Origin: Rouxiella sp. S1S-2
GTDB lineage: Bacteria > Pseudomonadota > Gammaproteobacteria > Enterobacterales > Enterobacteriaceae
Length of the DNA: 64,000 nucleotides
Direction: 5' to 3'
NCBI RefSeq assembly: GCF_009208105.1
Contig: NZ_WFKL01000001.1
Span: 1,426,001-1,490,000, forward strand
Position 1 is the first letter of the stretch, and each line of letters opens with the position of its first letter. Position numbers and translations under genes: made by a program. Under the pieces are notes generated by a model. It was not told the origin of the DNA. It did no database searches and saw nothing but the letters and a program-made list of their open reading frames with translations. Positions 23,648 through 53,506 of the stretch are shown in pieces.

Positions 23648-24925
23648 TTAAAAATCATATTCCAATGCGAGGCGGTTCTGCCAGAAGTTTTTATTCGAGG
23701 TTGAGGTCGTTTGAACACCCGCGAAGTCCGTCAGGCTAAGGCCTTTGAGCACGCCGTCGAAACTGTAGGTGCCATACACCAGATATTCAGACTGATTGCT
23801 GCTGGAGGCGCCCGAGTTCGGCGTTAAATCCATAAACGAGTAACGACTGCCCAACGAGATATTTTCGTTGACGGTCCAGTTCAGGTCGGTTGAGTAAGCA
23901 TTGCCGCTGCCCAGGTCCTGGGTGCTGGTGAAGAACGGCTGGGCGAAGTAGGTGCCCGACGAGGTGTTGTGCGCGTAGGGAGCGACTAATGCACCGTTGC
24001 CGTAGGCGTTTTCACTGGCGGCGATGTGGTCGTAGTTCAGTGACCATATCAGTGACGGTGTCAGGTTCATGACAAACTGTGCGCCATAGCTGGTGCTGTC
24101 GACCTGTCCCGCCAGTGCCTTGCCTTCACTCAGGCCGCGGATAAACTGAATGCCGATTTTAGGCTGGTAAGGCGTGTCTGACCACGACAGGAAGCTGTCG
24201 GCATAGACCATTTTGGTGTAGTTGTTGTAATCCTCATACCACAGCTGGCCGTTAAGCTTTTTATTATCCAGCTTGATGGCACGCCCGCCGCCGATGCCCC
24301 ACATGCCGTTAGTGGTGCCTTCGGCGTCGGTGTAGGCCGTGGTGTCAAGGAACTGGTCGTCGCCCCACGGCTTGTAGCGGGTGATTTTTGTCGCGTGCAG
24401 GAAGTTATCGCTGTCGCCGTAATTGGCGTCAATGCCACGGAAGAGAATAGGCGTGATACGCCAGTCGTAGTCGCCGATGAACGGAATATTAATGCGCTGG
24501 TCACCGGCAGTAATGCGAAAGTCCTGATAGTGCCAGCTCAGGTAGGCTTCGCCCACGCCGGTTTCGTTTGGGCCAAGCTCCGTGATCAAGTGGTCATCAT
24601 TGTGCGCAATGCCGCGCTGGAAGATACCGCTCACGCCGAGGCTTAGGCCATAATATTCTGCGGTGGTATATTTAACACTGCCGCCGTAGCTGATGGTGTC
24701 TTGAGAATACCCGGGCACGAAATAGGCATTTTTAGTTGAATAGTACAGGGTTCGCAGGCTACCGTGCACCGAGCCGCAGGTGAACATTTCTGTCAATGAA
24801 TCAGCGACGCCAGCGTCACAGCTTGAGGCAATCGGTGTGGCTGCCAGCGCATGCCCCATAAAGAGAGCCTGAGAGACAATAACAGCGCCCAATTTAAGCG
24901 TGAAATTAAATTTATTTATTTTCAT
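23648..24925 (-). CDS. OprD-like outer-membrane porin
   Basis: A 425-residue outer-membrane beta-barrel. The start was taken at 24925 because AGGAGGG precedes that ATG and a clean signal peptide follows (MKINKFNFTLKLGAVIVSQA, cleavage after HALA). The mature protein has alternating aromatic strands such as GSLRTLYYSTKNAYF, WHYQDFRITAGDQRINIPF and SLGSRYSFMDLTP, and ends in Phe, the beta-barrel sorting signal. The pattern is OprD-like, so a substrate-selective channel for small organic solutes is likely. It is the last gene of a minus-strand run that includes an ABC importer, and probably provides outer-membrane entry for the same compound. A strong hairpin at 25013-25037 separates it from the gene upstream. 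Confidence 0.78.
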   Translation of the reverse strand: MKINKFNFTLKLGAVIVSQALFMGHALAATPIASSCDAGVADSLTEMFTCGSVHGSLRTLYYSTKNAYFVPGYSQDTISYGGSVKYTTAEYYGLSLGVSGIFQRGIAHNDDHLITELGPNETGVGEAYLSWHYQDFRITAGDQRINIPFIGDYDWRITPILFRGIDANYGDSDNFLHATKITRYKPWGDDQFLDTTAYTDAEGTTNGMWGIGGGRAIKLDNKKLNGQLWYEDYNNYTKMVYADSFLSWSDTPYQPKIGIQFIRGLSEGKALAGQVDSTSYGAQFVMNLTPSLIWSLNYDHIAASENAYGNGALVAPYAHNTSSGTYFAQPFFTSTQDLGSGNAYSTDLNWTVNENISLGSRYSFMDLTPNSGASSSNQSEYLVYGTYSFDGVLKGLSLTDFAGVQTTSTSNKNFWQNRLALEYDF

Positions 24926-25012
24926 TAATACCCTCCTGTCAGAAATATAATAAGTTTCTTCGACCGCAAAAACGGTCAATAGCTTTTTATAAAGTAATAC
25001 GCAAGCGGAAGT

Positions 25013-25037
25013 CCCCCTGCCTATTGATGGCAGGGGG
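25013..25037. other. Strong intercistronic hairpin upstream of the porin gene
   Basis: CCCCCTGCC (25013-25021) and GGCAGGGGG (25029-25037) form a perfect nine-base GC-rich stem with a seven-base loop, 14 bases past the stop of the flavin oxidase. There is no T-run. It may reduce, but not block, read-through into the porin gene, or stabilise the upstream message. Confidence 0.65.
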
Positions 25038-25050
25038 TTAATTATTGTTT

Positions 25051-26454
25051 TTATTGGTCAGCTAATAACAGTGGATCATTATCTAACGTTAATGTGTCGC
25101 GTACTTCCCAGCCTCTGAGCTTACCAGGGTTAAGTAATCCATTAGGATCTAAACACTTTTTAACAGAGACGACATCGGATTTAATTTCACCCTGTTTACC
25201 GTCTTCAATTTGATAAACGTGTGGGTTATTTATTTTGACGTCATTATTACGAAATATCTGCATTATTTCATTTAATCGTTCTTCAGTCGAATAACGAATT
25301 AACTGCAAACCACTGGCGGTTATATTTCCGTCATTGTCGCGCAGGAATTCTATATGTGAAACAACCTCGTCGCCAAATAACGCTGCCATATCGATAATCT
25401 GTTGACGATAGTTATTATAATTAAACGCCGTTTGCAGATAGGTGAGCGTCGGGTCAATTTTGAGCGCGTGCAGCGTCGTGTGGTTCCAGCAATACTCCAT
25501 CAAGGAAGCGTTAGCGTCACGGGCTTCATCAGCCGTTTGGCGCACGGCACTTTGCCCACGGTGTTTCGTCAGTAGGTTAGTGCACAGGCCTTCACTTTCC
25601 TGCGCAATGACGCTGATCACTGCGTGCTGAGTGGCCTGATAGTGTCCGTTTAAATGACTAAAGTAGCTTGGTATCGGTGCGGCAAACAGCGCCAGCTGCC
25701 GTTTTACCAGCCCAGGAGAGCGGGCAAAGGCGTTGGCGTAATCCAGTGCGTCGGTAAAGTCGTCGAATACGTCCAGACGTTCAATCCAGCGATGCGCAGG
25801 CGCCAGCGCCAATTCAACCTCGAGCACGATTCCGTTGCTGCCGTAAGCATGATGCAGCAGCAGCGCCTGTGGAGCGGGAACGTCAAGAATGCGCGGCTCG
25901 GCCTCCATGGTCATCACTTTCACGCTGAGCACGTTGCCCGGCGCACCCAGTGGACCATAGTTGATGGAGCCGATGCCGCCAAATCCACCGCCGTAAAGGC
26001 CCCCCAGACTGGCCAGCCGATAAGTTGACGGCATGCAGCGAAGCTCCCAGCCTGCGGGGCGGGTGACGGTTTCAATGTCTGCCAGGCGAATTCCCGCTTG
26101 CGCACGCACCACGCCATCACCCAGCGCGCAAACTTGGTTAAACCCAGTCATGTCGACCAAAATACCGCCCTGCAGCGGGACCAGTTGACCATAATTACCG
26201 GTCGCGCCGCCGCGCAAAATCAGCGGTAACTGATGCCTCACGCAGGCCTGAACCAACAGGCGCAGCTCTTCTTCACTGCGCGGTTTGACCACCGCATCGG
26301 CCTGTTTATTTTCCAACTGTTGTTTCAGCACCGGGCTGAACCAGTGAAAATCGCGCGAAAGGCGTTTCACCTTTGGCGCCTGCAGGGTCCACTCGAGGTC
26401 GGGAAGCGCCTGCTGTATCAGGGCCAGCGCGCTCTTACGTTGTTCACTGTCCAT
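25051..26454 (-). CDS. FAD-linked oxidase (GlcD/VAO type)
   Basis: A 467-residue flavoprotein of the vanillyl-alcohol-oxidase/GlcD superfamily. The FAD-binding domain shows LRGGATGNYGQLVPLQGG and MPSTYRLASLGGLYGGGFGG. The C-terminal domain ends with the usual CLDPNGLLNPGKLRGWE. It lacks a signal peptide and iron-sulfur motifs. Such enzymes oxidise hydroxy acids, alcohols or amines. It follows the ABC permease after 30 bases and so belongs to the catabolic run; the substrate is unknown. Confidence 0.87.
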   Translation of the reverse strand: MDSEQRKSALALIQQALPDLEWTLQAPKVKRLSRDFHWFSPVLKQQLENKQADAVVKPRSEEELRLLVQACVRHQLPLILRGGATGNYGQLVPLQGGILVDMTGFNQVCALGDGVVRAQAGIRLADIETVTRPAGWELRCMPSTYRLASLGGLYGGGFGGIGSINYGPLGAPGNVLSVKVMTMEAEPRILDVPAPQALLLHHAYGSNGIVLEVELALAPAHRWIERLDVFDDFTDALDYANAFARSPGLVKRQLALFAAPIPSYFSHLNGHYQATQHAVISVIAQESEGLCTNLLTKHRGQSAVRQTADEARDANASLMEYCWNHTTLHALKIDPTLTYLQTAFNYNNYRQQIIDMAALFGDEVVSHIEFLRDNDGNITASGLQLIRYSTEERLNEIMQIFRNNDVKINNPHVYQIEDGKQGEIKSDVVSVKKCLDPNGLLNPGKLRGWEVRDTLTLDNDPLLLADQ

Positions 26455-26484
26455 ATTCTTTCTGCCCGTAAATAATGAATGATT

Positions 26485-27300
26485 TTAATGAGACTGCACG
26501 ACTTCGCTTTCATGCCAGGCACTCAGGACACGGCGGGAAATCCACGACATCACCCCAAATAGCGCAATACCGGTCAGTGAAATTAACAGCAGAGCGGCGA
26601 ACATCAGCGGAATGTCGAGCTGATATCCTGCCTGCAGTATCTGGTAGGCCAGGCCGGTATTATTTCCGCCGGTTCCCGCCACAAACTCGGCCACCACCGC
26701 ACCAATTAGCGACAGTCCGCTGGAGATACGCAGCGCGCCAAAAAAGTAGGGCAGAGCAGAAGGAATGCGCAGACGAAAAAGGATCTGCAGGCGGCTGGCG
26801 TTGCTCAGCTGGAAATAGCTCAGCAGACCGGGCGAAACGCTGCGCAACCCCTGAGTGGTGTTGGAAATAATCGGGAACACCGCCATCAGGGTCGAGCAGA
26901 CCACCAAAGAGAGCGTGGTGTCTTTAACCCAAATAATAATCAGCGGTGCGATGGCAACGATGGGCGTGACCTGCAGAAAAACGATGTAAGGAAACAGCGC
27001 CGTTTCCACAAAGCGGTTCTGCACCAGCACAAAGGCCACCGCCGCGCCGATTACGATCGACAGTAAAAATGAAATCAGGGTGATTTTTAGCGTAAACAGC
27101 AGCGACATCATCAGCGAACCCAGATTGGTCCACAGGCTTTGCAGCATCACCCCCGGTGAAGGCACGAGAAACTGGGGGATTTTGAAATAGCTGACCCAGC
27201 CCTGCCATAGCAAAATCACCACCACTGCCACCAGTGCGGGATAAAGAATTTTTCGAAACGTGGGATTATTCATCCACGGGGAGGATTTTTGAGTGGGCAT
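26485..27300 (-). CDS. ABC transporter permease (SsuC/TauC/ThiX type)
   Basis: A 271-residue inner-membrane permease of the nitrate/sulfonate/pyrimidine-precursor importer class. The start at 27300 (MPTQKSSPW) has GGAG seven bases upstream; a longer frame to 27360 overlaps the ATPase gene and is unlikely. Six hydrophobic helices are visible. The cytoplasmic loop that contacts the ATPase lies in the region with RIPSALPYFFGALRISSGLSL, as in this permease class. It lies just after the ATPase gene. Confidence 0.9.
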   Translation of the reverse strand: MPTQKSSPWMNNPTFRKILYPALVAVVVILLWQGWVSYFKIPQFLVPSPGVMLQSLWTNLGSLMMSLLFTLKITLISFLLSIVIGAAVAFVLVQNRFVETALFPYIVFLQVTPIVAIAPLIIIWVKDTTLSLVVCSTLMAVFPIISNTTQGLRSVSPGLLSYFQLSNASRLQILFRLRIPSALPYFFGALRISSGLSLIGAVVAEFVAGTGGNNTGLAYQILQAGYQLDIPLMFAALLLISLTGIALFGVMSWISRRVLSAWHESEVVQSH

Positions 27301-27304
27301 ACGT

Positions 27305-28132
27305 TTACTCCATACCTGATTGGCTGGCTTGCAGCAGGCTGTCCTGCAACTGCTTCGCATAGCGTGAAAAAGCGGGACTGACGCGGAAATCTTCGCTGCG
27401 TGGGAAAGGCTCAGTAATGGCGATATCCTCCACTACGCGCCCCGGCCGCGCTGCCATCATGACAACCCGCTGAGAAAGAAATACGGCTTCGTGAATCGAG
27501 TGAGTCACGAACACCACCGTTAACCCTTGCTCGCGCCACAGTCGCAGCAGGTCACTGTCGAGCTTGTTACGGGTTATCTCGTCGAGTGCGCCAAAAGGTT
27601 CGTCCATAAGCAACAGTTTGGGGCGTGTCACCAGTCCGCGAGCAATGGATACGCGCATCTGCATGCCGCCCGAAAGCTCGCGCGGCAGCACTTTAGCAAA
27701 CTTGCCCAAACCGACCAGCTCCAGCGCTTCACTGACGCGAGTGTTGGCTTCGGCGCGCGGTACGCCAGCAAGATCCAGCGGAAGACGCACGTTATTTTGC
27801 ACGTTGCTCCACGGCATGAGCGTCGCTTCCTGAAACACGAAAGAGAGCGGCACCTGGCCTTTTTCGCGACTGTCTTTGCGCCACAGCACCAGTTTGCCGT
27901 CGCTTGGCTCGATAAGTCCGGCCACCATCTTGAGCAGCGTACTTTTACCGCAGCCGGACGGGCCGAGCAGGGTCACGAATTCGCCCTGATTAATGGTGAG
28001 ATTAACCGGCAACAGCGCGCGTGTGCCGTTGCTGTATATTTTCTCCGCCGACAGCACCTCGATGGCTGGCGTTGAAGGGGCGCTTGCGGTGCGCACGTCG
28101 CTCATAATGGTCAGTTTCGGTGCGGAATTCAT
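27305..28132 (-). CDS. ABC transporter ATP-binding protein (SsuB/TauB/ThiZ type)
   Basis: A 275-residue ATPase that powers the importer. Walker A is GPSGCGKST, the Q-loop is in FVFQEATLMPW, the signature is LSGGMQMRVSIARGL, Walker B with the catalytic Glu is LLLMDEPFGALDE, and the switch His is in VFVTHSIHEAV. All motifs are intact. Its ATG overlaps the stop of the binding-protein gene (ATGA), and the permease begins four bases after its stop, so binding protein, ATPase and permease form one unit. Confidence 0.94.
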   Translation of the reverse strand: MNSAPKLTIMSDVRTASAPSTPAIEVLSAEKIYSNGTRALLPVNLTINQGEFVTLLGPSGCGKSTLLKMVAGLIEPSDGKLVLWRKDSREKGQVPLSFVFQEATLMPWSNVQNNVRLPLDLAGVPRAEANTRVSEALELVGLGKFAKVLPRELSGGMQMRVSIARGLVTRPKLLLMDEPFGALDEITRNKLDSDLLRLWREQGLTVVFVTHSIHEAVFLSQRVVMMAARPGRVVEDIAITEPFPRSEDFRVSPAFSRYAKQLQDSLLQASQSGME

Positions 28133-29112
28133 GGCATAACCTTCGCATCTTTGATCATGTCGAGAGTATACGTCTGCTCAAACGGCACTTTATCGGCATC
28201 GATCAGCTTGTTTTTTACCAGCATGTCCCAGGTCTTTTTCAGACGGGGTTCAGTGATAATGCCAATGCCGCCGGTCTGTGCATCGCCGCCGGTAACTAAC
28301 TGATATTTCTTCATCTGCGCGATGCCGAAAGCAATCTGGTCTGCACCCATGCGTGGATTATCTTTGTGAATCAACGCGTTGCCCGCCGTTGGATCCTGAA
28401 GATACTCCTTCCAGCCCTGCATCGAGGCTTTCACAAAGGCAGCCACCGCGGCAGGGCGTTTCTTAACGGTATCGGCCATGCAGATAATTGAGTTGCCATA
28501 AGGCGGGTAGCCCCAGTCGCTGAGCATATAAACGTAGAAAGGTTTGCCGCCTTTTTCGACCGAGAAAGGCTCGGAGGTGACATAGCCCTGCTGCACCAGA
28601 TTATTGTCTGCCAGGAAAGGCTGAACGCTAAAGGTATAGGGGCGAATTTTTGCGCTAGCTAGACCCAGTTCGCTCTTGGCCCACGGCCAGAAAGAGGTGT
28701 AGGCCTCAGTGGCGAGCAGGAAGGTTTTGTCCTTCAATCCCTGCGCATTTTCAACCTTGTCGTGGCTGATAAATACCGTAGGTGAATGCTGAAACACTGT
28801 CGCAACTGTCACCGCATGCACACCGGCCTGCCAGGTTTCGAGCGCCTGACCGTTGTCGCCAAGCGTACAGTCGGCCTGACCTGCGGCCATCAGCTGCATG
28901 ACGTTAACCTGCGGGCCACCCATTTTGATGCTGACGTCGAGGCCGGCATTTTTATACAAACCCTTGGCCTCGGCGTCATAAAAACCGCCGTGCTCGGCCT
29001 GCGCGTACCAGTTAGTCAAAAAGGTAAATTTCTCTTCGGCCATGCTGGTGGTAGAAATCCCGGCCAGCAGCAGCGCAAGCAGAGTGTGAGTCGGGGTAGG
29101 CAGTTTTATCAT
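28129..29112 (-). CDS. NMT1/THI5-like ABC substrate-binding protein, copy 1
   Basis: A 327-residue periplasmic binding protein. The start at 29112 is chosen because it has AAGGA upstream and gives a signal peptide (LLALLLAGISTTSMA, cleaved before EEKF). The mature N-terminus has TNWYAQAEHGGFYDAEAKGL and KMGGPQVNVMQLMAAGQAD, the NMT1/THI5-like pattern. Family members bind thiamine-pyrimidine precursors, riboflavin, nitrate or sulfonates. It is paralogous to the protein at 34185-35174. It is encoded with its own ATPase and permease, next to hydrolases of C-N bonds, which favours a nitrogen heterocycle as ligand. Confidence 0.88.
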   Translation of the reverse strand: MIKLPTPTHTLLALLLAGISTTSMAEEKFTFLTNWYAQAEHGGFYDAEAKGLYKNAGLDVSIKMGGPQVNVMQLMAAGQADCTLGDNGQALETWQAGVHAVTVATVFQHSPTVFISHDKVENAQGLKDKTFLLATEAYTSFWPWAKSELGLASAKIRPYTFSVQPFLADNNLVQQGYVTSEPFSVEKGGKPFYVYMLSDWGYPPYGNSIICMADTVKKRPAAVAAFVKASMQGWKEYLQDPTAGNALIHKDNPRMGADQIAFGIAQMKKYQLVTGGDAQTGGIGIITEPRLKKTWDMLVKNKLIDADKVPFEQTYTLDMIKDAKVMP

Positions 29113-29125
29113 CGCGGCAGTTCCT

Positions 29126-30007
29126 TTATTCAGAGACAAAAGAAGACGAAGGGGGAGTAAAAGTGGTTTGCACGAAGCCGTTCCAGTGGTGTTTTCCCCA
29201 GGTTGGCTCGCTGCGTACTTTCCATTGCATGCGGTGAATTTCAACGATTGCCTGTGCCCAGCTGTCTGCCAGCGAGTCGAGGATCGCGTGGCCCTGTTCA
29301 ACGGTGGCCTCGGTCGGATCGCCAATTACGCCGCTGGGGCCAAAATCGTAAGAGGCCCAGGCAGCAGCAGGGCGGCCGCTTGAAAGCGTCGGACACGGGA
29401 ACTCAGGCGGATAATTGGCCACCGCGTGCTCCATGTGGACACATTCCGGGGCCAGCGCCATCATCACCGCGGTTTCACTGTGGCCGGCGTGCATCGCCAT
29501 TTTTTGCTCTAACGCACTCAGGAACTGGTTTTCAACGTTAGGCACGCGGAACACGTCGTGGGGGATCATTATCATGTCGCCGTGGCGCAGACGCATTTCA
29601 CGCGATGCCATCTGCAAAACCTGTGGCTGTCCACCGTGGCCGTTAATCATCAATAACTTACGGAATCCAGCGCGATACAGCGATTCGGCAATTTCGAGCA
29701 CAGTTTGCAGCAGCGTGTCGCCGGTCAAGGTCAGCGTGCCGGGAAAGTTGAGATGTTCGTCCGACTTGCCATAGGTAATGGGCGGGATAGCATAGGCTGG
29801 AATATCCTGTGGCAGCCGCGCCAGCGCATGACCGGCCACGCCAGAGGAGATCACGCTATCGACCGAACAAGGCAGGTGTGGGCCGTGCTGCTCAATGGCG
29901 CCGGTCGGCAGCACAATAACGGTATTGGCTTTGTCAGGCAGGGCAGCGATCGCCGTCCAGCTCAGGAAAGGGAGAAAACGTGCTGCGGGAATATAGCCGT
30001 TAATCAT
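29126..30007 (-). CDS. Creatininase-family amidohydrolase
   Basis: A 293-residue metal hydrolase. Metal-binding signatures of the creatininase family are seen: LPTGAIEQHGPHLPCSVDS, GKSDEHLNFPGTLTL, MINGHGGQ, and MHAGHSETAVMM. Family members open cyclic amides (creatinine) or remove a formyl group from formylaminopyrimidines (ArfB type). It lies between RidA and the binding protein, with short gaps of 21 and 13 bases. In this context it probably cleaves a C-N bond of the imported compound; which one is unknown. Confidence 0.88.
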   Translation of the reverse strand: MINGYIPAARFLPFLSWTAIAALPDKANTVIVLPTGAIEQHGPHLPCSVDSVISSGVAGHALARLPQDIPAYAIPPITYGKSDEHLNFPGTLTLTGDTLLQTVLEIAESLYRAGFRKLLMINGHGGQPQVLQMASREMRLRHGDMIMIPHDVFRVPNVENQFLSALEQKMAMHAGHSETAVMMALAPECVHMEHAVANYPPEFPCPTLSSGRPAAAWASYDFGPSGVIGDPTEATVEQGHAILDSLADSWAQAIVEIHRMQWKVRSEPTWGKHHWNGFVQTTFTPPSSSFVSE

Positions 30008-30028
30008 ACTGTGCCTCGTCGTCAGACG

Positions 30029-30499
30029 TTATTGGGTTAAGCGGGATGGGGGTAACCAGGCCGTGGCCTCAACTTCTATCAATACCTCGGCGCTGGGCAG
30101 CATTTCACTGACCTGCACCACGGTAGAAACCGGCGGTTGCCCGGGATAGAACATTTTTCTCACCCGGCTGTAGTACGGGAAGTGGTCGAGATTGCGAAAA
30201 TACTGCACCAGCTTGATGACATCGCTCATTTGGCCACCGGCCTCTTCAATGGTGTGGCGGATGCTTTCAAGCACATACCAGCTTTGTGCAAGAATTGGGC
30301 CTTGTTTGGCATCGGTTGAGAACTCACCGGTTTCACCCAGCAGCAGGCGCGCTTGGGCCGGAATATCCTGAAAACCGCGTACGATAGTCGCGCTCTGTGG
30401 GTTGACCGGAATAATGCCGGAGAGAAAGATAAAATCGCCTGCGCGACGCCAGGCGGCATATTTGGCGAGCGGTTTGCCCGCGCCGGCTTCAAGACTCAT
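30029..30499 (-). CDS. RidA-family protein
   Basis: 156 residues of the RidA/YjgF/RutC family. The protein shows FIFLSGIIPVN, then VRGFQDIPAQARLLL, and the C-terminal PVSTVVQVSEMLPSAEVLIEVEATAW, which includes the usual acidic residue of the active-site cleft. Canonical RidA hydrolyses reactive enamines/imines, using an Arg that binds the carboxylate; I do not see that Arg clearly placed, so this may be an Rid subgroup with another substrate. Such proteins are common beside pyrimidine and amine degradation genes. The ATG overlaps the end of the amidohydrolase gene by 11 bases. Confidence 0.87.
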   Translation of the reverse strand: MSLEAGAGKPLAKYAAWRRAGDFIFLSGIIPVNPQSATIVRGFQDIPAQARLLLGETGEFSTDAKQGPILAQSWYVLESIRHTIEEAGGQMSDVIKLVQYFRNLDHFPYYSRVRKMFYPGQPPVSTVVQVSEMLPSAEVLIEVEATAWLPPSRLTQ

Positions 30500-31769
30500 G
30501 AGATAACTCCTGATTCCACGTGCGTTGATGGGTCAGCCTGCCGTGGTGGATAACCAGGCGGGCCGCGCTGTTTAACGGCCAGGTCGCGATGTTGCTACCG
30601 GGGAATACGACCAGCGTGGCGGCGCTGCCCTCCGCCAGCGGGGGTTGCGTGTGCGCATTGCCGGTGAGCGCCGCCGAGTCACAGATAAGCCGCGACTGTT
30701 GGTCAAAAAGGGTGTCGAGTTGCAGAGAGAACAGGGCGCAGCTCAGTGTATCCAGCGGGTCATAGCTGCCTGCCGGACAAAATGCATCCTGCACGTTATC
30801 GCAGCCCAGCAGCGTCGGAATACCTGCAACCTGCGCTTCTTTAAGCAGGGTTATTCCGCGCTGGCGCGGCGTGCGGCCCACCACCGCGTCCTGCAGCAGC
30901 AGGTTAGTCATCGGCAACGCAATCAGCGTCACGCGCTGCGCTGTCAGCATAGCCAACACTTCCTGCGCCTGCCGTTCGCTGCCCGAGGCCAGCGCGCAGC
31001 CGTGGCTGCAGCAAATGTGGCCGCTAAAGGGGTTTTCTGACAAATAGTGCGCCAGCCAGGTCAGTCCGTGGGCGGTGGCGGTCAACTCTTCGTCAATGTG
31101 CAGGTCCAGATTTAATTGCCAGGCGGATGCACTGTGCATCAGATTCTTCATCGCCGCCGGGTCCCAGTTGGACGAGTGAATAAAGCCGCCCAGCAGACAG
31201 TGTTCACCGCTTTGCGCCACGGCACGGGCAATGTCGTCTGCCGCAGTGGCATTGGCAAAAAAGCCCAGCGGTACCAACGCGACCCGCTCAAGGGTAACGC
31301 CGTGCTCTTCAACATTGGCCATTTCATGCCAGGCCACCGGCGGCGTTGCAGTAAACCAGTCAATGTGCGTGCGCAAATGCGTTACACCGTGGGCAGCCGC
31401 CCATGCCAGGCCTCGTTTGCCGCGCTGCTGGAGGTCTTCGGCGGTCCAGTGTTGGCGGTCCTGATGCATTGTTTCAATGGCGGCCAGCAGACCCGGTTTT
31501 GAAGGACGACTGCGGCCAATGGTGAAGGTTTTATCGAGGTGTGCATGCGGCTCAATCATTCCCGGCAGTGCCAATGCGCCTTGAGCGTCCCATAGGTCAA
31601 GCTGCGGGGGATGACTCGGGGTCAGCGACGAAATTTTGCCGTCTTCAAAGCGCAAGTCCGCCGTTGCCGGTTCGCCTGACTGTTGCGGCCAGCTCGGAGG
31701 CAGCAGCCACGCCGGAAGGCGCAGGTTGGCAATGCCGTTAAGCGCTGTTGCAGTGTTAAGAGAGGTCAT
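30489..31769 (-). CDS. Cytosine-deaminase-like amidohydrolase
   Basis: 426 residues of the CodA-like branch of the amidohydrolase superfamily, cytoplasmic. Metal-binding HxH is in LPGMIEPHAHLDKTF. Further signature segments are HLRTHIDWF, LDLHIDEEL, CCSHGCALASG and LLGCDNVQDAFCP, the last holding the catalytic-type Asp. The start at 31769 has GGAG at proper spacing; an ATG at 31790 overlaps the reductase stop but has no ribosome-binding site. Relatives deaminate cytosine, isoguanine, creatinine or N-alkyl ammelides. It lies second in the run after the reductase. Confidence 0.87.
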   Translation of the reverse strand: MTSLNTATALNGIANLRLPAWLLPPSWPQQSGEPATADLRFEDGKISSLTPSHPPQLDLWDAQGALALPGMIEPHAHLDKTFTIGRSRPSKPGLLAAIETMHQDRQHWTAEDLQQRGKRGLAWAAAHGVTHLRTHIDWFTATPPVAWHEMANVEEHGVTLERVALVPLGFFANATAADDIARAVAQSGEHCLLGGFIHSSNWDPAAMKNLMHSASAWQLNLDLHIDEELTATAHGLTWLAHYLSENPFSGHICCSHGCALASGSERQAQEVLAMLTAQRVTLIALPMTNLLLQDAVVGRTPRQRGITLLKEAQVAGIPTLLGCDNVQDAFCPAGSYDPLDTLSCALFSLQLDTLFDQQSRLICDSAALTGNAHTQPPLAEGSAATLVVFPGSNIATWPLNSAARLVIHHGRLTHQRTWNQELSHES

Positions 31770-31789
31770 CTTAATGCTCCGCGTTGACA

Positions 31790-32758
31790 TTACAGGTCGA
31801 GGACCAGAACAGGACTTTTAGAACGCGAACAGCACAGCGTAATTTGCGTGTTCTCCTCTTTTTCTTCTTGGCTTAGTACGCAGTCGCGGTGGTCCGGAAT
31901 ACCGTCTATAACGTCAGTAATACAGGAACCACAAATACCCTGTTCGCACGACAGCATAATATCGACCTTGGCACTCAGTAATACTTCGGCAATCGTTTGA
32001 TTAGGGCTGACTAAATAACGCTGGCCGGTCGAATTTAACTGAATATAAAACGCTTTCTCATCGACAAGGTTATTTACGGGCGCAGGGCTAAAGCGTTCAA
32101 AAGATAATTGCGCCGCCTGCCATTGATGCTTGTGCAGCAGGTCCTGCAGGCGTTCAATAAATCCCTCTGGCCCACAGGCGATAACTCTGGTCTCTGGGTT
32201 AGCCTTGAGTAGACAATCGGGCGTTTTTTGGCGCAGGGAATCGTTTGCGTCGCTGTAATGGAGAAAAACGTGTTTCGCCAATATCGGCGCACTCAGGCGG
32301 TTCATAAAGGCCGTCCCCTGTCCATTAGAGACATAGTAATGCAGTTCAAAATCAATATCTTGAGTTGCGATTTGCTCGGCCATCGCCAGCAGCGGGGTAA
32401 TACCAATTCCCCCCGCAAACAGCAGATAGCGCGTTGCCGCAGGCAGATGAAAATGATTGCGCGGTGCAGAAATATTCAGGCTATCGCCCGCCTTGAGGTG
32501 GTGATGAATGAAATGCGACCCCCCAGAGGATATTTCCGACAGCTTGACGCAAATTTCATAATATTCAACGGTGTCGATTTCGGTGCAGAGAGAATATTGA
32601 CGAGGACCAATATCAGGAATGAAAACGTCAATGTGTGCGCCGGGTGAGTAAGTCGGTAATAGGTGCCCTTGCTGCGCGATAAGCTGCAATGAAATATTCC
32701 CTAAACCGTTTCTCGTGACAGTCTTTATAGTGACAGGAATTAACTCGGCGTCTTTCAT
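31790..32758 (-). CDS. Phthalate-dioxygenase-reductase-type (VanB/HpxE-like) oxidoreductase
   Basis: A 322-residue electron-transfer protein. The N-terminal flavin-binding barrel has RQYSLCTEID, the NAD(P)-binding domain has YLLFAGGIGITPLLAMAEQI, and the C-terminal plant-type 2Fe-2S domain has CEQGICGSCITDVIDG plus a distal Cys in HRDCVL. This is the class IA reductase layout that normally feeds a Rieske oxygenase. No Rieske oxygenase is encoded in the window, so its partner is either elsewhere or unusual. It is the promoter-proximal gene of the minus-strand operon, divergent from the LysR gene. Confidence 0.9.
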   Translation of the reverse strand: MKDAELIPVTIKTVTRNGLGNISLQLIAQQGHLLPTYSPGAHIDVFIPDIGPRQYSLCTEIDTVEYYEICVKLSEISSGGSHFIHHHLKAGDSLNISAPRNHFHLPAATRYLLFAGGIGITPLLAMAEQIATQDIDFELHYYVSNGQGTAFMNRLSAPILAKHVFLHYSDANDSLRQKTPDCLLKANPETRVIACGPEGFIERLQDLLHKHQWQAAQLSFERFSPAPVNNLVDEKAFYIQLNSTGQRYLVSPNQTIAEVLLSAKVDIMLSCEQGICGSCITDVIDGIPDHRDCVLSQEEKEENTQITLCCSRSKSPVLVLDL

Positions 32759-32806
32759 TCTGGTTTACCGTATTTGTCTTATTTAAAAAATATAAAAAGG
32801 AAAAGT

Positions 32807-32826
32807 GTTAAAACGGGCGTTTTAAC
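32807..32826. promoter_or_regulatory. Perfect inverted repeat in the LysR/reductase divergent spacer
   Basis: GTTAAAAC (32807-32814) and GTTTTAAC (32819-32826) are exact reverse complements around GGGC, about 50-70 bases before the reductase start. It could be the LysR-type regulator's operator or a hairpin in the operon leader. No other symmetric element of this quality is seen in the 238-base spacer. Confidence 0.45.
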
Positions 32827-32996
32827 CTCTTAACCACACAACCCACTGCGGGAGGGGCTAATGGAGTGAGGAGGCTGCTTTTTAAGCGATGAAACGATTG
32901 TTCCCGTTGCAATGAAAGCTACGTTATTGTTATAAAAGCGTTGCGTCCAGCGCTTTGATTCGCACATCCCGTTGCATAAAAGAGAGCACCTCGACT

Positions 32997-33920
32997 ATGT
33001 TCGCATTCTCCCGATTTCTGCTGTACTTCACCGAAGTTGCCCGTCAGGGATCGTTTCGCAAGGCGTCCGAAACGCTGCACGTGGCGGCATCGTCTATTGA
33101 TCGACAGATACTGCGGGTTGAAAAAGAGCTGGCGATGCCGCTATTTGAAAGACACCCCACCGGGCTGCGGTTGACGGCGGCGGGTGAGCTGTTGCTGCAC
33201 GCCGCTAATAATTGGAAAAAGGATTTTAATCGCGTTTGTGAACAGCTTGATGACCTGCGCGGCCTGAGGCGCGGGCATGTCCGCATTGCAACGATTGATG
33301 CCATAAATCGGCACTTCTTTTCGGCGATGCTTAAGAAGGTGCACCTCGACTATCCCAACATCTCATTCACGCTGACCACCATGAACAACATTGATATTCA
33401 GCAGGCGCTGATGTCGGGTGACGCCGACTTTGGGATCATGCTCAATCCCCAGAGTTCCCGCGAGCTGCAGGTGCAGGCCTTTGCCGAAATTAATCTGGGT
33501 ATTGTGGTACCGAAAGGGCATCCGCTGAGCGAGAAGCGCAGTATTCGATTCAATCAATGTATGGAATATCCCTTTATCATTCCGTCTGCGCCGCTAATGC
33601 TTTCCGAGCCGGTTGAGGCGCTGATCAACATTAACGGTGGCATGATTAATGAGGTCGCGGTTTCCAACAATATTCATATGATCCGTTCACTGATTAAAGA
33701 GAAAATAGGTATCGGTATTTTATGCTGGCTCGACATTATGGATGAGGTGCTTGATGACCAGCTGCTGTTTATTCCGCTCACCGATCCGCAGCTAAAAACC
33801 TTTACCCTGTCGCTGTGCGTTGCGCCGTCGCGCCAACTCTCCCTGGCGGCGTCGATGATGCTTAAACAGCTCGAACTGTTATTTAGCCAGATTCAAAACC
33901 CAGGCAACGAAACGCCGTAA
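32997..33920 (+). CDS. LysR-family transcriptional regulator
   Basis: 307 residues. The ATG at 32997 gives MFAFSRFLLYFTEVARQGSF, a normal LysR beginning; the frame can be extended to a TTG at 32955, but that adds no family sequence. The winged helix-turn-helix has RKASETLHVAASSIDRQILRVEKEL (about 20-44). The effector domain spans about 90-300, with DADFGIMLNPQ and VPKGHPLSEK. It is encoded between the two arms of the catabolic island and probably controls both, responding to the imported compound or an intermediate. Confidence 0.9.
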   Translation: MFAFSRFLLYFTEVARQGSFRKASETLHVAASSIDRQILRVEKELAMPLFERHPTGLRLTAAGELLLHAANNWKKDFNRVCEQLDDLRGLRRGHVRIATIDAINRHFFSAMLKKVHLDYPNISFTLTTMNNIDIQQALMSGDADFGIMLNPQSSRELQVQAFAEINLGIVVPKGHPLSEKRSIRFNQCMEYPFIIPSAPLMLSEPVEALININGGMINEVAVSNNIHMIRSLIKEKIGIGILCWLDIMDEVLDDQLLFIPLTDPQLKTFTLSLCVAPSRQLSLAASMMLKQLELLFSQIQNPGNETP

Positions 33921-34184
33921 TTTGCACCAACGTAGTGCTCGCTGCTCTGCTTTGAATCAAAGGTTGCAGAGTAGAATGAGCTTAAAACACCCACAAAGCG
34001 CATGGATTGGGCACGGGTAGAGTTGGCATCGTTTTTGTATAGCTACAAGTGAGTAGAAGCGGTCAGTGCAGAAAAGTGCGCGGGACATTGCTCAGCAACC
34101 ATTTCGCGGTTCATTTTGAGCCGGAGACGGAGGCTGAGCGGCTTTTTGCTTGTCCTCCTCCCGGCGATGATTAGGAGAGGAGCA

Positions 34185-35174
34185 ATGAAGTTAACATCTC
34201 GCATTCCCCTGTCTTGCTGCGTGCTGAGCACGCTGATACTGGGGACTTTTTCGCTGACGGCCCACGCTGACGAGAAGCTTGTTCTGCTGACCTCGTGGTA
34301 TGCCCAGGCCGAGCAGGGCGGTTATTATCAGGCGCTGGCGACCGGTATTTATAAACGTTACGGGTTGGATGTCACGATTCAGTCCGGTGGGCCGCAGATC
34401 AATGGCATGCAGTTGCTGCTGTCAAAGCGCGCCGACGTGATTATTGGCTATGATCTCCAACTGCTCGATGCCGTGCAGCGCGGTTTTCAGGCTAAAGCGA
34501 TCGCTGCTCCGTTTCAGTTCGACCCGCAGGGTTTACTCACCCACGCTTCGGTCACCTCGCTTGACGGCTTAAAGGGTAAAACCATTCTGGTGTCCAGCTC
34601 GGGCCAGTCAACCTGGTGGCCATGGTTGAAAGAGCGCTATCATCTCAGCGATTCTCAGGCTCGGCCTTACACCTTCAATATTCAACCCTTTGTTGCCGAT
34701 GACAATGTTGCGCAGCAGGCCTACGTCAGCTCTGAAGTATTTCAGGCGAAAAAAGCCGGGGTGAAATCTAATTTCTTCCTCTTCTCCGAGCACGGATACC
34801 CCCCTTATGGCGGTATTTTGATTACCCGTCCGGATCTGATCGACAGCCGTAAAGACGCCATGGCCAAGTTTGTGCGCGCCTCAATGGAAGGCTGGGTCAG
34901 TTATCTGCAAAACCCTGCACCGGGCAACGCGTTAATCAAAAAAGACAACCCGAAAATGACCGACGACCTGTTGGACTGGGCGGTGTTGCAAATCAAACAG
35001 CATCACCTGATTGACGGCGGTGACGCCGCGACGCAGGGCTGGGGCACCATGACGCAGGCTCGCTGGCAGAAGACCCGAGATTTTATGGTCAATGCCAAAT
35101 TGCTCAATGCGGACACTGACTGGAAACAGGCCTACACCACGCAGTTTGTCGAGCATATGGACGTCAAACCCTGA
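34185..35174 (+). CDS. NMT1/THI5-like ABC substrate-binding protein, copy 2
   Basis: A 329-residue periplasmic binding protein with a signal peptide ending TAHA before DEKL. The start ATG at 34185 follows GGAGAGGAG; the longer frame from 34116 is not needed. It is paralogous to copy 1 along its whole length: TSWYAQAEQGGYYQALATGI and SGGPQINGMQLLLSKRAD align with the same positions there, as do RPYTFNIQPFVADDN and NALIKKDNPKM. It has no permease or ATPase beside it and may share those at 26485-28132 with a different ligand preference. Confidence 0.87.
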   Translation: MKLTSRIPLSCCVLSTLILGTFSLTAHADEKLVLLTSWYAQAEQGGYYQALATGIYKRYGLDVTIQSGGPQINGMQLLLSKRADVIIGYDLQLLDAVQRGFQAKAIAAPFQFDPQGLLTHASVTSLDGLKGKTILVSSSGQSTWWPWLKERYHLSDSQARPYTFNIQPFVADDNVAQQAYVSSEVFQAKKAGVKSNFFLFSEHGYPPYGGILITRPDLIDSRKDAMAKFVRASMEGWVSYLQNPAPGNALIKKDNPKMTDDLLDWAVLQIKQHHLIDGGDAATQGWGTMTQARWQKTRDFMVNAKLLNADTDWKQAYTTQFVEHMDVKP

Positions 35175-35185
35175 GGAGCGTTGTA

Positions 35186-36613
35186 ATGTCATCTCATTCA
35201 TTGCTGATTAAAAATGCGCACGCCATTCTGACCGGCCTGCCGGGTGATGCTGCCCGCCACACTGGGCCAGATATTCGCGTGCGCGACGGCGTAATTGAGG
35301 CCATCGGGTCTCTGACGGCACTGCCGGAAGAGAGGCTGATTGACGCCCGAGACTGCGTGGTGTATCCGGCGTGGGTCAATACGCACCATCACCTGTTTCA
35401 GTCTTTGCTTAAAGGTGAGCCGCAGGGGCTGAACAAAAGCCTGACCGAGTGGTTAAGCGCTACGCCTTATCGTTTTCGCGCCACCTTCGATGAACCAACA
35501 TTTCGTCTGGCGGTGCGCATTGGCCTGATTGAGCTGCTGCGTTCGGGCTGTGCCACCGTTGCCGATCATAACTATCTCTACTGGCCGGATATGCCGTTTG
35601 ATCCCTCAGAGATTGTGTTTAGCGAGGGTGAAGCGTTAGGTATGCGCATCGTGTTGTGCCGGGGAGGGGCCACGCAGGGACGGGCGATTGAGCGCGATTT
35701 ACCGCAGGCGCTGCGACCGGAAAACGTCGAGCACTACATGGCGGACATTGAGCGTTTGGTCGCACGCTATCACGACCCGCGTCCGGCGTCGCTGCGTCGC
35801 ATCGTGATGGCTCCGACTACGCTGCTGCATTCGGCGCCGGGATCGCAACTGCGTGAAATGGCTAAACTGGCTCGCCAGTTGGGTATTCGCCTGCACAGTC
35901 ACCTCTCAGAAACGGTGGATTATCTTGATGCAGCGCGGGACAAATTTGGCATGACGCCGGTCGAGTTTTGCGCCGAACACGATTGGCTGGGCGATGACGT
36001 GTGGTTTGCGCACCTGGTGAAACTGTTGCCGCAGGAAATAGCTATGCTGGGGCAAACCCGCACCGGTATTGCCCACTGTCCGCAGAGTAACGGGCGTTTG
36101 GGCAGCGGTATCGCCGACCTGTTGGCATTGGAAAAAGCCGGCGTGCCGGTTTCTTTGGGCGTTGACGGTGCGGCGTCTAACGAGGCGGCCGACATGCAGA
36201 GTGAGGCGCATGCCGCCTGGCTGTTGCAGCGTGCCAGAAAAGGCATGCAGGCGCAGCCGCGCTACGACGGCGGCACCTTTGAAGGCGGCGGTGATGCCGC
36301 GTCCATTGAAGATGTGGTGCGCTGGGGCAGCGCGGGCGGTGCGCAGATCCTCGGCCTGCAACAAAGCGGGTCATTGCAGGTGGGCATGCTGGCGGATATC
36401 GCCGTTTATCGGCTGGACGACCCGCGCTACTTCGGCCTGCATGATATGGCCATCGGTCCGGTAGCCTGCGGCGGTCGTGCTTCGCTCAAAGCTTTGATGA
36501 TTAACGGTCGCGTGATTGTTGAAAACGACGTCGTGCCGGGTCTCGACCTGGAAGAGATGCGCCATCAGGCGATGTCAGCGGTTCGTACCCTACACCAACG
36601 CGCAGCGCGTTAA
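35186..36613 (+). CDS. 8-oxoguanine deaminase/chlorohydrolase-type amidohydrolase
   Basis: A 475-residue cytoplasmic metal hydrolase of the TrzN/AtzB/8-oxoguanine deaminase group. The HxH element is in VNTHHHLFQSLLKGEP, the next metal His in RLHSHLSET, then WFAHLVKL, and the catalytic Asp in GVDGAASNEAADM. These match deaminases of purine- or triazine-type rings. It begins 11 bases after the binding-protein gene and is followed by a dioxygenase in the same direction. If it is an oxopurine deaminase, the product would be urate-like; this is inference. Confidence 0.88.
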   Translation: MSSHSLLIKNAHAILTGLPGDAARHTGPDIRVRDGVIEAIGSLTALPEERLIDARDCVVYPAWVNTHHHLFQSLLKGEPQGLNKSLTEWLSATPYRFRATFDEPTFRLAVRIGLIELLRSGCATVADHNYLYWPDMPFDPSEIVFSEGEALGMRIVLCRGGATQGRAIERDLPQALRPENVEHYMADIERLVARYHDPRPASLRRIVMAPTTLLHSAPGSQLREMAKLARQLGIRLHSHLSETVDYLDAARDKFGMTPVEFCAEHDWLGDDVWFAHLVKLLPQEIAMLGQTRTGIAHCPQSNGRLGSGIADLLALEKAGVPVSLGVDGAASNEAADMQSEAHAAWLLQRARKGMQAQPRYDGGTFEGGGDAASIEDVVRWGSAGGAQILGLQQSGSLQVGMLADIAVYRLDDPRYFGLHDMAIGPVACGGRASLKALMINGRVIVENDVVPGLDLEEMRHQAMSAVRTLHQRAAR

Positions 36614-36640
36614 CCCTATTGATTAAGAAGGAAAATAAAA

Positions 36641-37627
36641 ATGACACAGTCTATTCAAACTCAAGGCTATGCACTGCAAGAGCTGGAAAAAGAAGCACAA
36701 ATGGGCGCAATGGGTGAAGAGACGTTTGCCCGTGAAGTTCGCTGTATTGACCTCTCGGATTTTGAGATCCGCAAAAGCGAGATAGCCGACGAACTTTGGC
36801 AGGCGGCGGTTGAAATCGGCTTCTTCCAGGTGAGCAACCACGGTATAGCGCTGGGCGACATCCGTCAGGCCTTCAGCATGACCGCCGATTTTTTCTCGTT
36901 ACCCAATGAGGTCAAGGCGCAGTATCCGCTGGCGCGCAACGCCGGTTGGGAAAATAAATCACAGGTTCGCCCGTCGACCAAAACACCCGACCAAAAAGAG
37001 TCTTATCAAATAACGCGCCCACTAATGGATGCGCTGTGGCCGAGCGATCGAGAGCTACCGGCGTTTAAAAATACCATGTTGGGCTTTGAGTCTCAGTGCT
37101 GGGAGTTGGGGATGAAGCTGCTGTCGTGCTTTGCACTCAAACTCGGCTTCCCCGAGCAATTTTTTGAACACGCGCATAATCCTGATCAGAAAACCTACCA
37201 AAGTACGCTGCGCATGCTGCATTACTACGCCACCGAACAGTCGCAGCAGGGGATGTGGCGCGCCGGTGCGCATACTGATTTTGACTGCCTGACGCTGTTG
37301 TTCCAACGTCCCGGTCAGGGCGGGTTGCAAGTTTGTCCGGGTAAAGACCGCGAAAGTCAGCAGTGGACCAGCATCGAACCGCGTGAAGAGGTGATTACCT
37401 GTAACATTGGTGACATGCTGATGCGCTGGAGTGACGACCAGCTGCCGTCGAATTTCCACCGAGTCAGAAATCCTCTGCCGGGTGAATATCAGGGCGAACG
37501 CTACAGTCTGGCTTTCTTCTGTCAGGCCAACAAAGACGTTGAAATTCTCGGGCCGCAGGCCAAGTATCCGGCGATCAGTGCCGAGGACTATTTGCAGCAG
37601 CGCATTCAGGCGAATTTTGCCAAGTAA
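36641..37627 (+). CDS. Isopenicillin-N-synthase-family Fe(II)/2-oxoglutarate dioxygenase
   Basis: A 328-residue non-heme iron oxygenase. The N-terminal DIOX_N part has VRCIDLSDFEI and AAVEIGFFQVSNHGI. The iron facial triad is His and Asp in GAHTDFDCLTLLFQ and the distal His in PSNFHRVRNPLPG, with RYSLAFFC as the 2-oxoglutarate-binding Arg-x-Ser. All ligands are intact. It closes the plus-strand arm of the island and probably hydroxylates or demethylates the imported compound before ring opening. Such enzymes take electrons from 2-oxoglutarate and do not need the reductase encoded nearby. Confidence 0.9.
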   Translation: MTQSIQTQGYALQELEKEAQMGAMGEETFAREVRCIDLSDFEIRKSEIADELWQAAVEIGFFQVSNHGIALGDIRQAFSMTADFFSLPNEVKAQYPLARNAGWENKSQVRPSTKTPDQKESYQITRPLMDALWPSDRELPAFKNTMLGFESQCWELGMKLLSCFALKLGFPEQFFEHAHNPDQKTYQSTLRMLHYYATEQSQQGMWRAGAHTDFDCLTLLFQRPGQGGLQVCPGKDRESQQWTSIEPREEVITCNIGDMLMRWSDDQLPSNFHRVRNPLPGEYQGERYSLAFFCQANKDVEILGPQAKYPAISAEDYLQQRIQANFAK

Positions 37628-47890: not shown

Positions 47891-48004
47891 TATGTTAATC
47901 CAGCTTAAATGTGATTCCCGCGCAGTATGTGAATAAACGCGAGTATTTAATTATCAGTGAAGTAATGCGTTAATGGTTATTGTGGGGAAATAACCTTTTA
48001 TGCC

Positions 48005-51116: not shown

Positions 51117-51129
51117 TTGAGTCAAGAAT

Positions 51130-53296: not shown

Positions 53297-53376
53297 CATT
53301 TTTAAATAAATCATCTTCAATGACTGACTTGTAGTGGGGCAAGTACATCCCGTATGCTACGAGGCTTAAGAGTTAT

Positions 53377-53502: not shown

Positions 53503-53506
53503 CTTT

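What the first reader, a model, noticed from the sequence alone, without database searches (positions are those of the whole stretch)
23648..37627. Uncharacterised uptake-and-breakdown island for a nitrogen-containing ring compound
Nine minus-strand genes (reductase, CodA-like deaminase, RidA, creatininase, NMT1-type binding protein, ATPase, permease, flavin oxidase, OprD-like porin) and four divergent plus-strand genes (LysR, second binding protein, oxopurine/triazine-type deaminase, 2-oxoglutarate dioxygenase) fit one catabolic programme. Three independent C-N hydrolases plus two oxidases and an importer of the pyrimidine-precursor class point to a purine-, pyrimidine- or triazine-like substrate. 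I cannot match this combination to Rut, Hpx, Puc or atrazine pathways. Tight spacing and overlaps (ATGA, 11-base overlap) support co-transcription on the minus strand.
Basis: partly seen in the sequence, partly recalled or inferred. Interest (0 to 1): 0.75.

Follow-up and report, generated by a model that had tools for sequence, protein, structure and literature searches.

The report
Riboswitch-linked pterin or purine scavenging island
A Rouxiella bacterium carries a 14-kb gene set that very probably imports ring compounds related to folate pigments or guanine, strips and oxidises them, and has an RNA sensor for xanthine in front of one half; the set recurs in other bacteria, but the exact compound has not been proved.

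Summary
Confirmed: nine minus-strand and four plus-strand intact genes at 23648-37627, in a Rouxiella near R. silvae. The arms work as one system: 19 of 38 enterobacterial loci with the minus arm also have the riboswitch module, and two Burkholderiales hold both halves in one same-direction run. Three enzymes point to pterins or folate. The plus-arm deaminase is 64% identical to 2PAJ (isoxanthopterin deaminase, recalled), 36% to 8-oxoguanine-deaminase-type chains. The CodA-like deaminase groups with pterin deaminases, whose Variovorax cluster holds the same eight families. The FAD oxidase's nearest solved structure is a 'flavin oxygenase ... involved in folate catabolism'. Best reading: uptake, deamination and oxidation of pterins, feeding xanthine (0.65); main rival: guanine or 8-oxoguanine salvage (0.2). 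Riboswitch and plus-arm gene types were linked by Yu and Breaker 2020; the minus arm and the pterin link are added here. Substrate and reactions are unproved.

The parts
23648..24925 (-). OprD-family outer-membrane porin (probable)
   Evidence: no Pfam hit itself; homologues L114 and L115 hit PF03573 at 33.2 and 24.2 bits, cut-off 25; present in 23 of 38 enterobacterial and 0 of 42 other loci
25051..26454 (-). FAD-linked oxidase (PF01565), homologue of a flavin oxygenase of folate catabolism
26485..27300 (-). ABC permease; start inferred at 27300
   Evidence: PF00528
27305..28132 (-). ABC ATPase
   Evidence: PF00005; Walker A, signature and Walker B motifs present
28129..29112 (-). SBP1, NMT1/THI5-like binding protein
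   Evidence: PF09084; 44% identical to SBP2; nearest solved chains 4NMY, THI5, formylaminopyrimidine-binding protein
29126..30007 (-). creatininase-family amidohydrolase
   Evidence: PF02633 240 bits; below the cut-offs of creatininase and MftE
30029..30499 (-). RidA-family protein
   Evidence: PF01042; below the RutC cut-off
30489..31790 (-). amidohydrolase, 'CodA-like', grouping with pterin deaminases
31790..32758 (-). phthalate-dioxygenase-reductase-like reductase with 2Fe-2S domain
   Evidence: PF00111; 2PIA 179 bits
32997..33920 (+). LysR regulator, divergent from the minus arm
   Evidence: PF00126 and PF03466
34046..34098 (+). xanthine riboswitch aptamer (NMT1 RNA, RF03054)
   Evidence: 56.3 bits, gathering 36, E 7.4e-10; one copy found in the genome
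34155..34182 (+). possible expression platform: hairpin that pairs the ribosome-binding site of SBP2
   Evidence: predicted pairs 34155-34162 with 34174-34182; prediction only, and present in a fold where the aptamer is not fully formed
34185..35174 (+). SBP2, NMT1-like binding protein without ATPase or permease in its arm
   Evidence: PF09084; free-standing relatives carry ATPase and permease
35186..36613 (+). PRK12393-type deaminase, isoxanthopterin-deaminase-like
   Evidence: NF009059 807 bits, cut-off 543; 64.4% to 2PAJ, 36.2% to 3HPA and 7WW2
36641..37627 (+). 2-oxoglutarate / Fe(II) dioxygenase
   Evidence: PF03171 and PF14226; best solved relative thymine dioxygenase 5C3P; HxD, H and RxS motifs present

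Best explanation
A pterin-scavenging island. A porin and one NMT1-type ABC importer, served by two binding proteins, bring in pterins (2-amino-4-oxopteridines such as isoxanthopterin, pterin-6-carboxylate or folate fragments). Two deaminases replace the 2-amino group and give 2,4-dioxo rings; the 2OG dioxygenase hydroxylates the ring; the FAD oxygenase, reductase, creatininase-type hydrolase and RidA oxidise, open and clean up the product. The pathway runs into xanthine, which the cell's ordinary xanthine dehydrogenase then handles. The riboswitch reads a 2-oxo product (xanthine-like) and turns off the binding protein / deaminase / dioxygenase arm when product builds up; LysR presumably controls the minus arm. 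SHOWN: genes, riboswitch, linkage of the arms, family kinships, ordinary purine genes elsewhere in the genome. INFERRED: the substrate, the order of steps, each reaction, LysR's role, the shared importer, OFF control in this strain.
For: (1) Xanthine riboswitch before SBP2. (2) Plus-arm deaminase 64.4% to 2PAJ, 36.2% to 3HPA and 7WW2, sharing with 2PAJ and not with those two the LxATPYRF, MAPTT and CPQSNGRL stretches. (3) The CodA-like protein falls with a clade that holds a UniRef-named 'Pterin deaminase', split 100/99 from E. coli CodA and six Variovorax/Xenophilus homologues. (4) Variovorax-type pterin-deaminase genes lie in a cluster with the same eight families (creatininase, ATPase, permease, FAD oxidase, SBP, reductase, RidA, CodA-like) in 3 of 4 fetched loci; the fourth starts at a contig end and shows 4 of 8. 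(5) The FAD oxidase's best solved match by sequence profile and by fold is 6V42, titled 'flavin oxygenase with cofactor bound involved in folate catabolism'; the FAD oxidase of the Variovorax pterin-deaminase cluster also hits it best (353 bits). (6) Island-type CodA-like proteins occur in 15 of 200 genomes of the Variovorax family, all 15 with the riboswitch, against 24 of the 185 others. (7) Guanine deaminase, XdhA/B/C, HIU hydrolase, OHCU decarboxylase and allantoate amidohydrolase lie elsewhere. (8) The riboswitch pocket reads the C2 urea part and leaves C8 open (PMC8266621, passages), so it can tell a deaminated ring from a 2-amino ring.
Against: No activity is shown. That 2PAJ is isoxanthopterin deaminase is recalled (paper not held), with indirect support. 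36% identity to a pterin deaminase and 34% to 6V42 do not fix specificity; of 6V42 I saw the title only. Yu and Breaker bought isoxanthopterin (methods passage) and the main text gives no result for it. A TadA-type deaminase lies in the riboswitch region of Variovorax L116, which fits guanine. No riboswitch was found at the Variovorax pterin-deaminase clusters. 5 of 13 genomes with the plus-arm deaminase in that family have no riboswitch, and in only 5 of the 15 island-type genomes do gene and riboswitch lie within 10 kb. Steps from a deaminated pterin to xanthine are not assigned to genes. A Hydantoinase_B homologue beside Hydrogenophaga copies is unexplained.
Confidence: 0.65

Rival explanations
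1. Purine salvage as Yu and Breaker read the riboswitch genes: the island imports guanine, 8-oxoguanine or related purines, deaminates and hydroxylates them to xanthine and uric acid, and the riboswitch stops the supply.
For: Riboswitch ligands are xanthine and uric acid (PMC7373994, parts 1-3 of 5 read); TadA-type deaminase and Rieske oxygenases in riboswitch modules of Burkholderiales; a UreD-family gene near the cluster in 6 Comamonadaceae loci (family F35; Pfam run on L043 only) fits a urate-to-urea route there.
Against: The genome already has guanine deaminase next to XDH genes; the plus-arm deaminase scores 384 bits against the 8-oxoguanine deaminase cut-off of 532; it does not explain the likeness of the minus arm to the pterin-deaminase cluster or the folate-catabolism match. 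The own genome has no urease alpha.
Confidence: 0.2
2. A creatinine-, hydantoin- or other guanidine-ring pathway: CodA-like deaminase, creatininase-type hydrolase and FAD oxidase act on an imidazolone.
For: Creatininase family; Hydantoinase_B and TctC genes beside copies in Hydrogenophaga.
Against: Creatininase model 109 bits against cut-off 235; the riboswitch link would be unexplained.
Confidence: 0.05
3. Pyrimidine or triazine catabolism.
For: NMT1-type binding proteins resemble pyrimidine binders; distant N-isopropylammelide hydrolase hits.
Against: RutC 50 bits against 169, cytosine deaminase 243 against 403, N-ethylammeline chlorohydrolase 160 against 609; xanthine riboswitch.
Confidence: 0.05
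4. The two arms are unrelated neighbours.
For: Each occurs alone: no riboswitch module within the fetched stretch in 19 of 38 enterobacterial loci; plus-arm module without the CodA-like protein in genomes G067, G101, G125, and on another contig in G100.
Against: One same-direction run in L118 and L119; shared genomes; the plus arm has no translocon of its own.
Confidence: 0.05

Closest known systems
Xanthine riboswitch (NMT1 motif) genes, Yu and Breaker 2020 (PMC7373994)
   Same: RF03054 aptamer before an NMT1/tauA-type binding protein, with a PRK12393 deaminase and a pcbC-like dioxygenase among the associated genes; the paper's 53 tauA RNA comes from Serratia plymuthica S13
   Different: the parts read do not treat the minus arm and read the genes as purine transport and oxidation ('creatinin' and 'pteri' do not begin any word of the main text)
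Isoxanthopterin deaminase Sgx9339a, PDB 2PAJ (name recalled)
   Same: 64.4% identity over 466 aligned residues, active-site stretches shared
   Different: no activity measured here; contact residues known from memory only
Pterin deaminase of Variovorax sp. F1 (PMC9513972) and the Variovorax-type gene cluster
   Same: CodA-like deaminase with RidA downstream; the same eight families co-cluster in 3 of 4 loci
   Different: 36% identity over 335 residues to P0313; no xanthine riboswitch there; the island adds a second deaminase and a dioxygenase
Flavin oxygenase of folate catabolism, PDB 6V42 (title seen only)
   Different: source organism, substrate and pathway of 6V42 not seen
Klebsiella hpxDE hypoxanthine oxidation (as cited in PMC7373994)
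   Same: oxygenase plus reductase chemistry; Rieske oxygenases fill the oxygenase slot in some Burkholderiales copies
   Different: no Rieske oxygenase in this island

Membership tests
Xanthine riboswitch regulon | RF03054 aptamer above the curated score | tested here: met
   56.3 bits, gathering 36
Xanthine riboswitch regulon | aptamer upstream of an associated gene type (NMT1, pcbC, PRK12393) | tested here: met
   aptamer ends 34098, SBP2 starts 34185, then PRK12393-type deaminase and dioxygenase
Xanthine riboswitch regulon | ribosome-binding site sequestered, OFF with ligand | tested here: inconclusive
   the ligand-free predicted fold already pairs the ribosome-binding site and breaks the outer aptamer stem
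Xanthine riboswitch regulon | binds xanthine or uric acid | not testable with these tools
   needs in-line probing or calorimetry
Isoxanthopterin deaminase | close full-length kinship to 2PAJ rather than to 8-oxoguanine deaminases | tested here: met
   64.4% against 36.2% and 36.2%; identity of 2PAJ recalled
Isoxanthopterin deaminase | Gln, Tyr, Thr, Thr substrate contacts (recalled) | tested here: inconclusive
   such residues sit in stretches shared with 2PAJ, but their exact positions come from memory
Isoxanthopterin deaminase | deaminates isoxanthopterin | not testable with these tools
   enzyme assay needed
8-oxoguanine deaminase | NCBIfam NF006055 cut-off 532 bits | tested here: not met
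   383.9 bits
Pterin deaminase (CodA-like protein) | groups with PDA rather than with cytosine deaminase | tested here: met
   100/99 split; midpoint root, long branches flagged by the tool
Pterin deaminase (CodA-like protein) | deaminates folate or pteroate | not testable with these tools
   enzyme assay needed
Cytosine deaminase | NCBIfam cut-offs (NF005759 403 bits, NF006685 483) | tested here: not met
   242.7 and 114.4 bits
Creatininase | TIGR04448 cut-off 235 bits | tested here: not met
   109.1 bits; E.H and NGHGG motifs kept
Rut pathway | RutC cut-off 169.1 bits | tested here: not met
   50.0 bits
Flavin oxygenase of folate catabolism (6V42) | best match by sequence and fold, well above the rest | tested here: met
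Flavin oxygenase of folate catabolism (6V42) | oxidises a folate or pterin | not testable with these tools
   enzyme assay needed

The most novel reading that the evidence does not exclude
The genes behind xanthine riboswitches of this type are largely a pterin- and folate-ring catabolic regulon: pteridine rings are deaminated, oxidised and contracted to xanthine, and the riboswitch senses that xanthine or, directly, a deaminated pterin (a 2,4-dioxopteridine) as a natural ligand. This would supply the use that Yu and Breaker called 'currently not readily apparent'. No paper tying the riboswitch to pterin breakdown was found.
Probability: 0.35. Interest if true: 0.8.

Novelty: new variant of a known kind. 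Interest (0 to 1): 0.6.

Why it matters
PMC9513972 says that folate breakdown in the environment is not fully understood and calls its enzyme the second pterin deaminase of its kind; the riboswitch paper left the purpose of its genes open. This island gives a short, testable gene list that would connect the two, with an RNA sensor that can tell a 2-oxo product from a 2-amino substrate.

Tried and rejected
Rejected: cytosine deaminase, creatininase, RutC, 8-oxoguanine deaminase and triazine hydrolases as literal names (cut-offs missed). Rejected: a palindrome at 32807-32826 as a conserved LysR site (of L002-L039 only L002 matches the pattern). Rejected: urease as part of the own pathway (no urease alpha). 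A second structure job (CodA-like) was not accepted. The riboswitch scans used loci chosen for gene content; unselected counts over all 80 loci are, but model R1 was built from 16 aptamers, 15 of them from relatives, and 11 of those lie among the 80 loci. The split into 'island-type' (44% or more) and 'pterin-deaminase-like' (30-39%) was made by eye. The 10-kb neighbourhood count (5 of 15) was made by eye. The pteridine-to-xanthine chemistry (McNutt, 1960s) is recalled, not seen. The urate oxidation step itself was not searched in the genome.


Full report
OBSERVATION. The thirteen genes exist as described, are open, and are tightly packed. The host is a Rouxiella: the R. silvae contig L002 carries the same island at 96-99% protein identity. 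The window lies at G000:C1:1426001-1490000 of a 5.36-Mb genome.

Rfam finds a xanthine riboswitch (NMT1 RNA) at 34046-34098 on the plus strand, 56.3 bits against a gathering score of 36, the only one found in the genome. It ends 86 bases before the start of SBP2. The predicted ligand-free fold of 34040-34200 (z -3.55) pairs the ribosome-binding site of SBP2 (34155-34162 with 34174-34182), but it also breaks the outer stem of the aptamer (34089-34096 pairs with 34133-34140), so how ligand would switch it is open.

THE ARMS ARE ONE SYSTEM. A scan with an alignment of the CodA-like protein found 301 relatives, of which 80 loci were kept: L002-L039 are Enterobacterales and L040-L081 Burkholderiales by record title, except L050, titled Pantoea but with Acidovorax-like identities. 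CodA-like, creatininase, SBP1, ATPase, permease and FAD oxidase are all present in 75 of 80; the other five stop at contig ends. RidA is in 38 of 38 enterobacterial and 25 of 42 other loci; the Fer2 reductase in 35 of 38 and 5 of 42. A covariance model found 44 aptamers in 34 of the 80 loci, and a plain pattern found the same 34: 19 of 38 and 15 of 42. The 19 are the 18 with the plus-arm deaminase plus L012, cut at a contig end after SBP2; the other 19 have no hit. So the minus arm also lives without the plus arm, mostly in Pantoea. In 11 of the 42 other loci a 2OG dioxygenase 66-69% identical to the window's lies divergently beside CodA-like.

Conversely the plus-arm module stands alone in other Enterobacteriaceae as dioxygenase <- riboswitch, riboswitch -> SBP, ATPase, permease, deaminase (L110-L113, with riboswitch places; in L111 the permease and in L113 the ATPase show in the similarity search but not in the filtered ORF list). 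The window's plus arm has neither ATPase nor permease, so SBP2 probably uses those of the minus arm (inference). In Burkholderiales L118 and L119 everything runs in one direction: flavodoxin-like reductase, CodA-like, creatininase, SBP1, ATPase, permease, FAD oxidase, RidA, riboswitch, SBP2, two Rieske oxygenases, deaminase (Pfam on L118's reductase and Rieske genes; L119's by eye). There Rieske enzymes take the place of the 2OG dioxygenase. L122 has a similar run with one Rieske gene and no CodA-like gene or riboswitch hit.

CO-OCCURRENCE. In 149 genomes of the own family the riboswitch occurs in 7, the deaminase (E at most 1e-150) in the same 7, and the CodA-like protein (E at most 1e-100) in 5, of which 4 are among the 7 (Fisher 3.6e-12 and 8.7e-6; without the own genome and the one other Rouxiella 5 of 5 and 2 of 3, 1.9e-9 and 0.003). 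In 200 genomes of the family of Variovorax genome G004 the riboswitch occurs in 39; island-type CodA-like proteins in 15, all with the riboswitch (1.7e-12); pterin-deaminase-like ones in 17, 11 with it; the deaminase (E at most 1e-90) in 13, 8 with it. In 5 of those 15 gene and riboswitch lie within 10 kb; in 10 they do not. Genomes are related, so the Fisher values overstate the evidence, and the large riboswitch searches used stricter filters.

WHICH SUBSTRATE. Plus-arm deaminase: NCBIfam PRK12393 at 807 bits, cut-off 543; 8-oxoguanine deaminase 384, cut-off 532. It is 64.4% identical to 2PAJ and 36.2% to 3HPA and 7WW2. I recall 2PAJ as isoxanthopterin deaminase Sgx9339a (Hall 2010), which also takes pterin-6-carboxylate; the paper is not held. 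[quoted passage not shown]

CodA-like protein: it misses the cytosine deaminase cut-offs. In 4 of 5 Variovorax/Xenophilus genomes searched a second CodA-like protein is followed by RidA (L087-L090). That fits the published pterin deaminase of Variovorax sp. F1: 399 residues, an endoribonuclease gene downstream in V. paradoxus, active on folic and pteroic acid (PMC9513972, parts 1-3 of 5 read). A member 74% identical to the L098 protein bears the UniRef name 'Pterin deaminase' (P0313). I did not have the F1 protein itself, so the match rests on length, neighbour and name. The window's protein is 36% identical to P0313 over 335 residues; a 35-row tree puts both on one side of a 100/99 split from E. 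coli CodA (midpoint root, long branches flagged). Around that gene, L098, L099 and L101 hold all eight families (32-57% identity to the window's); L100 begins at a contig start and shows four. No riboswitch hit lies in those stretches.

REST OF THE GENOME. Guanine deaminase with XdhA, XdhB and XdhC (L109), and HIU hydrolase, OHCU decarboxylase, allantoate amidohydrolase and an aminotransferase over no named cut-off (L108) lie elsewhere. No urease alpha was found. Ordinary purine breakdown is thus largely covered, and an island making xanthine could feed it; the urate oxidation step was not searched. In six Comamonadaceae loci a gene of the UreD family lies near the cluster (family F35; Pfam on L043), as in riboswitch locus L116, which suggests urea downstream there.

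MECHANISM, INFERRED. The named relatives of both deaminases act on a 2-amino-4-oxo pyrimidine face. The riboswitch pocket reads the C2 urea part and the 6-oxo group and leaves C8 open (PMC8266621, passages), so it can separate 2-oxo products from 2-amino substrates. Import, deamination, ring hydroxylation, flavin oxidation, lactam opening (creatininase type) and imine clean-up (RidA) is a plausible set of steps, order unknown. The chemistry I recall for a pteridine-to-xanthine route (tetraoxopteridine to xanthine-8-carboxylate) would end at the riboswitch's ligand. Against this: Yu and Breaker bought isoxanthopterin (methods passage) and the main text gives no result for it; a TadA-type gene in riboswitch locus L116 fits guanine.

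VERDICT. One system: about 0.95. Substrate of the 2-amino-4-oxo fused-ring class (pterin or guanine type): about 0.85. Pterins or folate fragments in particular: about 0.65 (0.5). New variant of a known kind: riboswitch and plus-arm gene types are published, and relatives of two minus-arm enzymes are known from pterin or folate breakdown; what this adds is that they form one riboswitch-linked system.

Noticed in passing
L104 (G000:C1:578000-597900): A second island in the same genome: creatininase paralogue (38%), BMP-type ABC importer, isochorismatase-type protein nearest to biuret hydrolase / RutB but below their cut-offs, and a TRZ/ATZ-type deaminase. Perhaps a further ring pathway.
   Followed up: partly
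window 53371-55128: TPP riboswitch before a ThiM-like and ThiD-like pair (gene names by eye).
   Followed up: no
window 48001-52443: Low-GC stretch (0.40-0.41 in 48001-52000, against 0.48-0.58 in most of the window) with a sensor kinase and response regulator resembling DctB/DctD by eye.
   Followed up: no
window 21577-22275: A lone SBP_bac_11 binding protein with no evident signal peptide by eye; no transporter genes seen right beside it in the ORF list.
   Followed up: no
L040, L041, L042, L056: Hydantoinase_B family genes upstream of the reductase and CodA-like gene in Hydrogenophaga (family F51; Pfam on L041 and L042), with a TctC protein (L040): a lactam opener may join the pathway there.
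   Followed up: partly
L068: The core cluster occurs twice in tandem.
   Followed up: no
L102 (same contig as L081, Xenophilus): A further, more distant CodA-like / SBP / FAD oxidase trio (30%, 41%, 33%) next to the island copy.
   Followed up: no
L045, L048, L061, L073, L074, L076, L078, L079: A flavodoxin-like reductase family (F26; Pfam on L078) lies just upstream of CodA-like in Burkholderiales loci, where enterobacteria have the Fer2 reductase; its electron acceptor is unknown.
   Followed up: partly
L050: Record titled Pantoea sp. 18069, but its cluster has Acidovorax-like identities and layout: perhaps a mixed or misnamed assembly.
   Followed up: no
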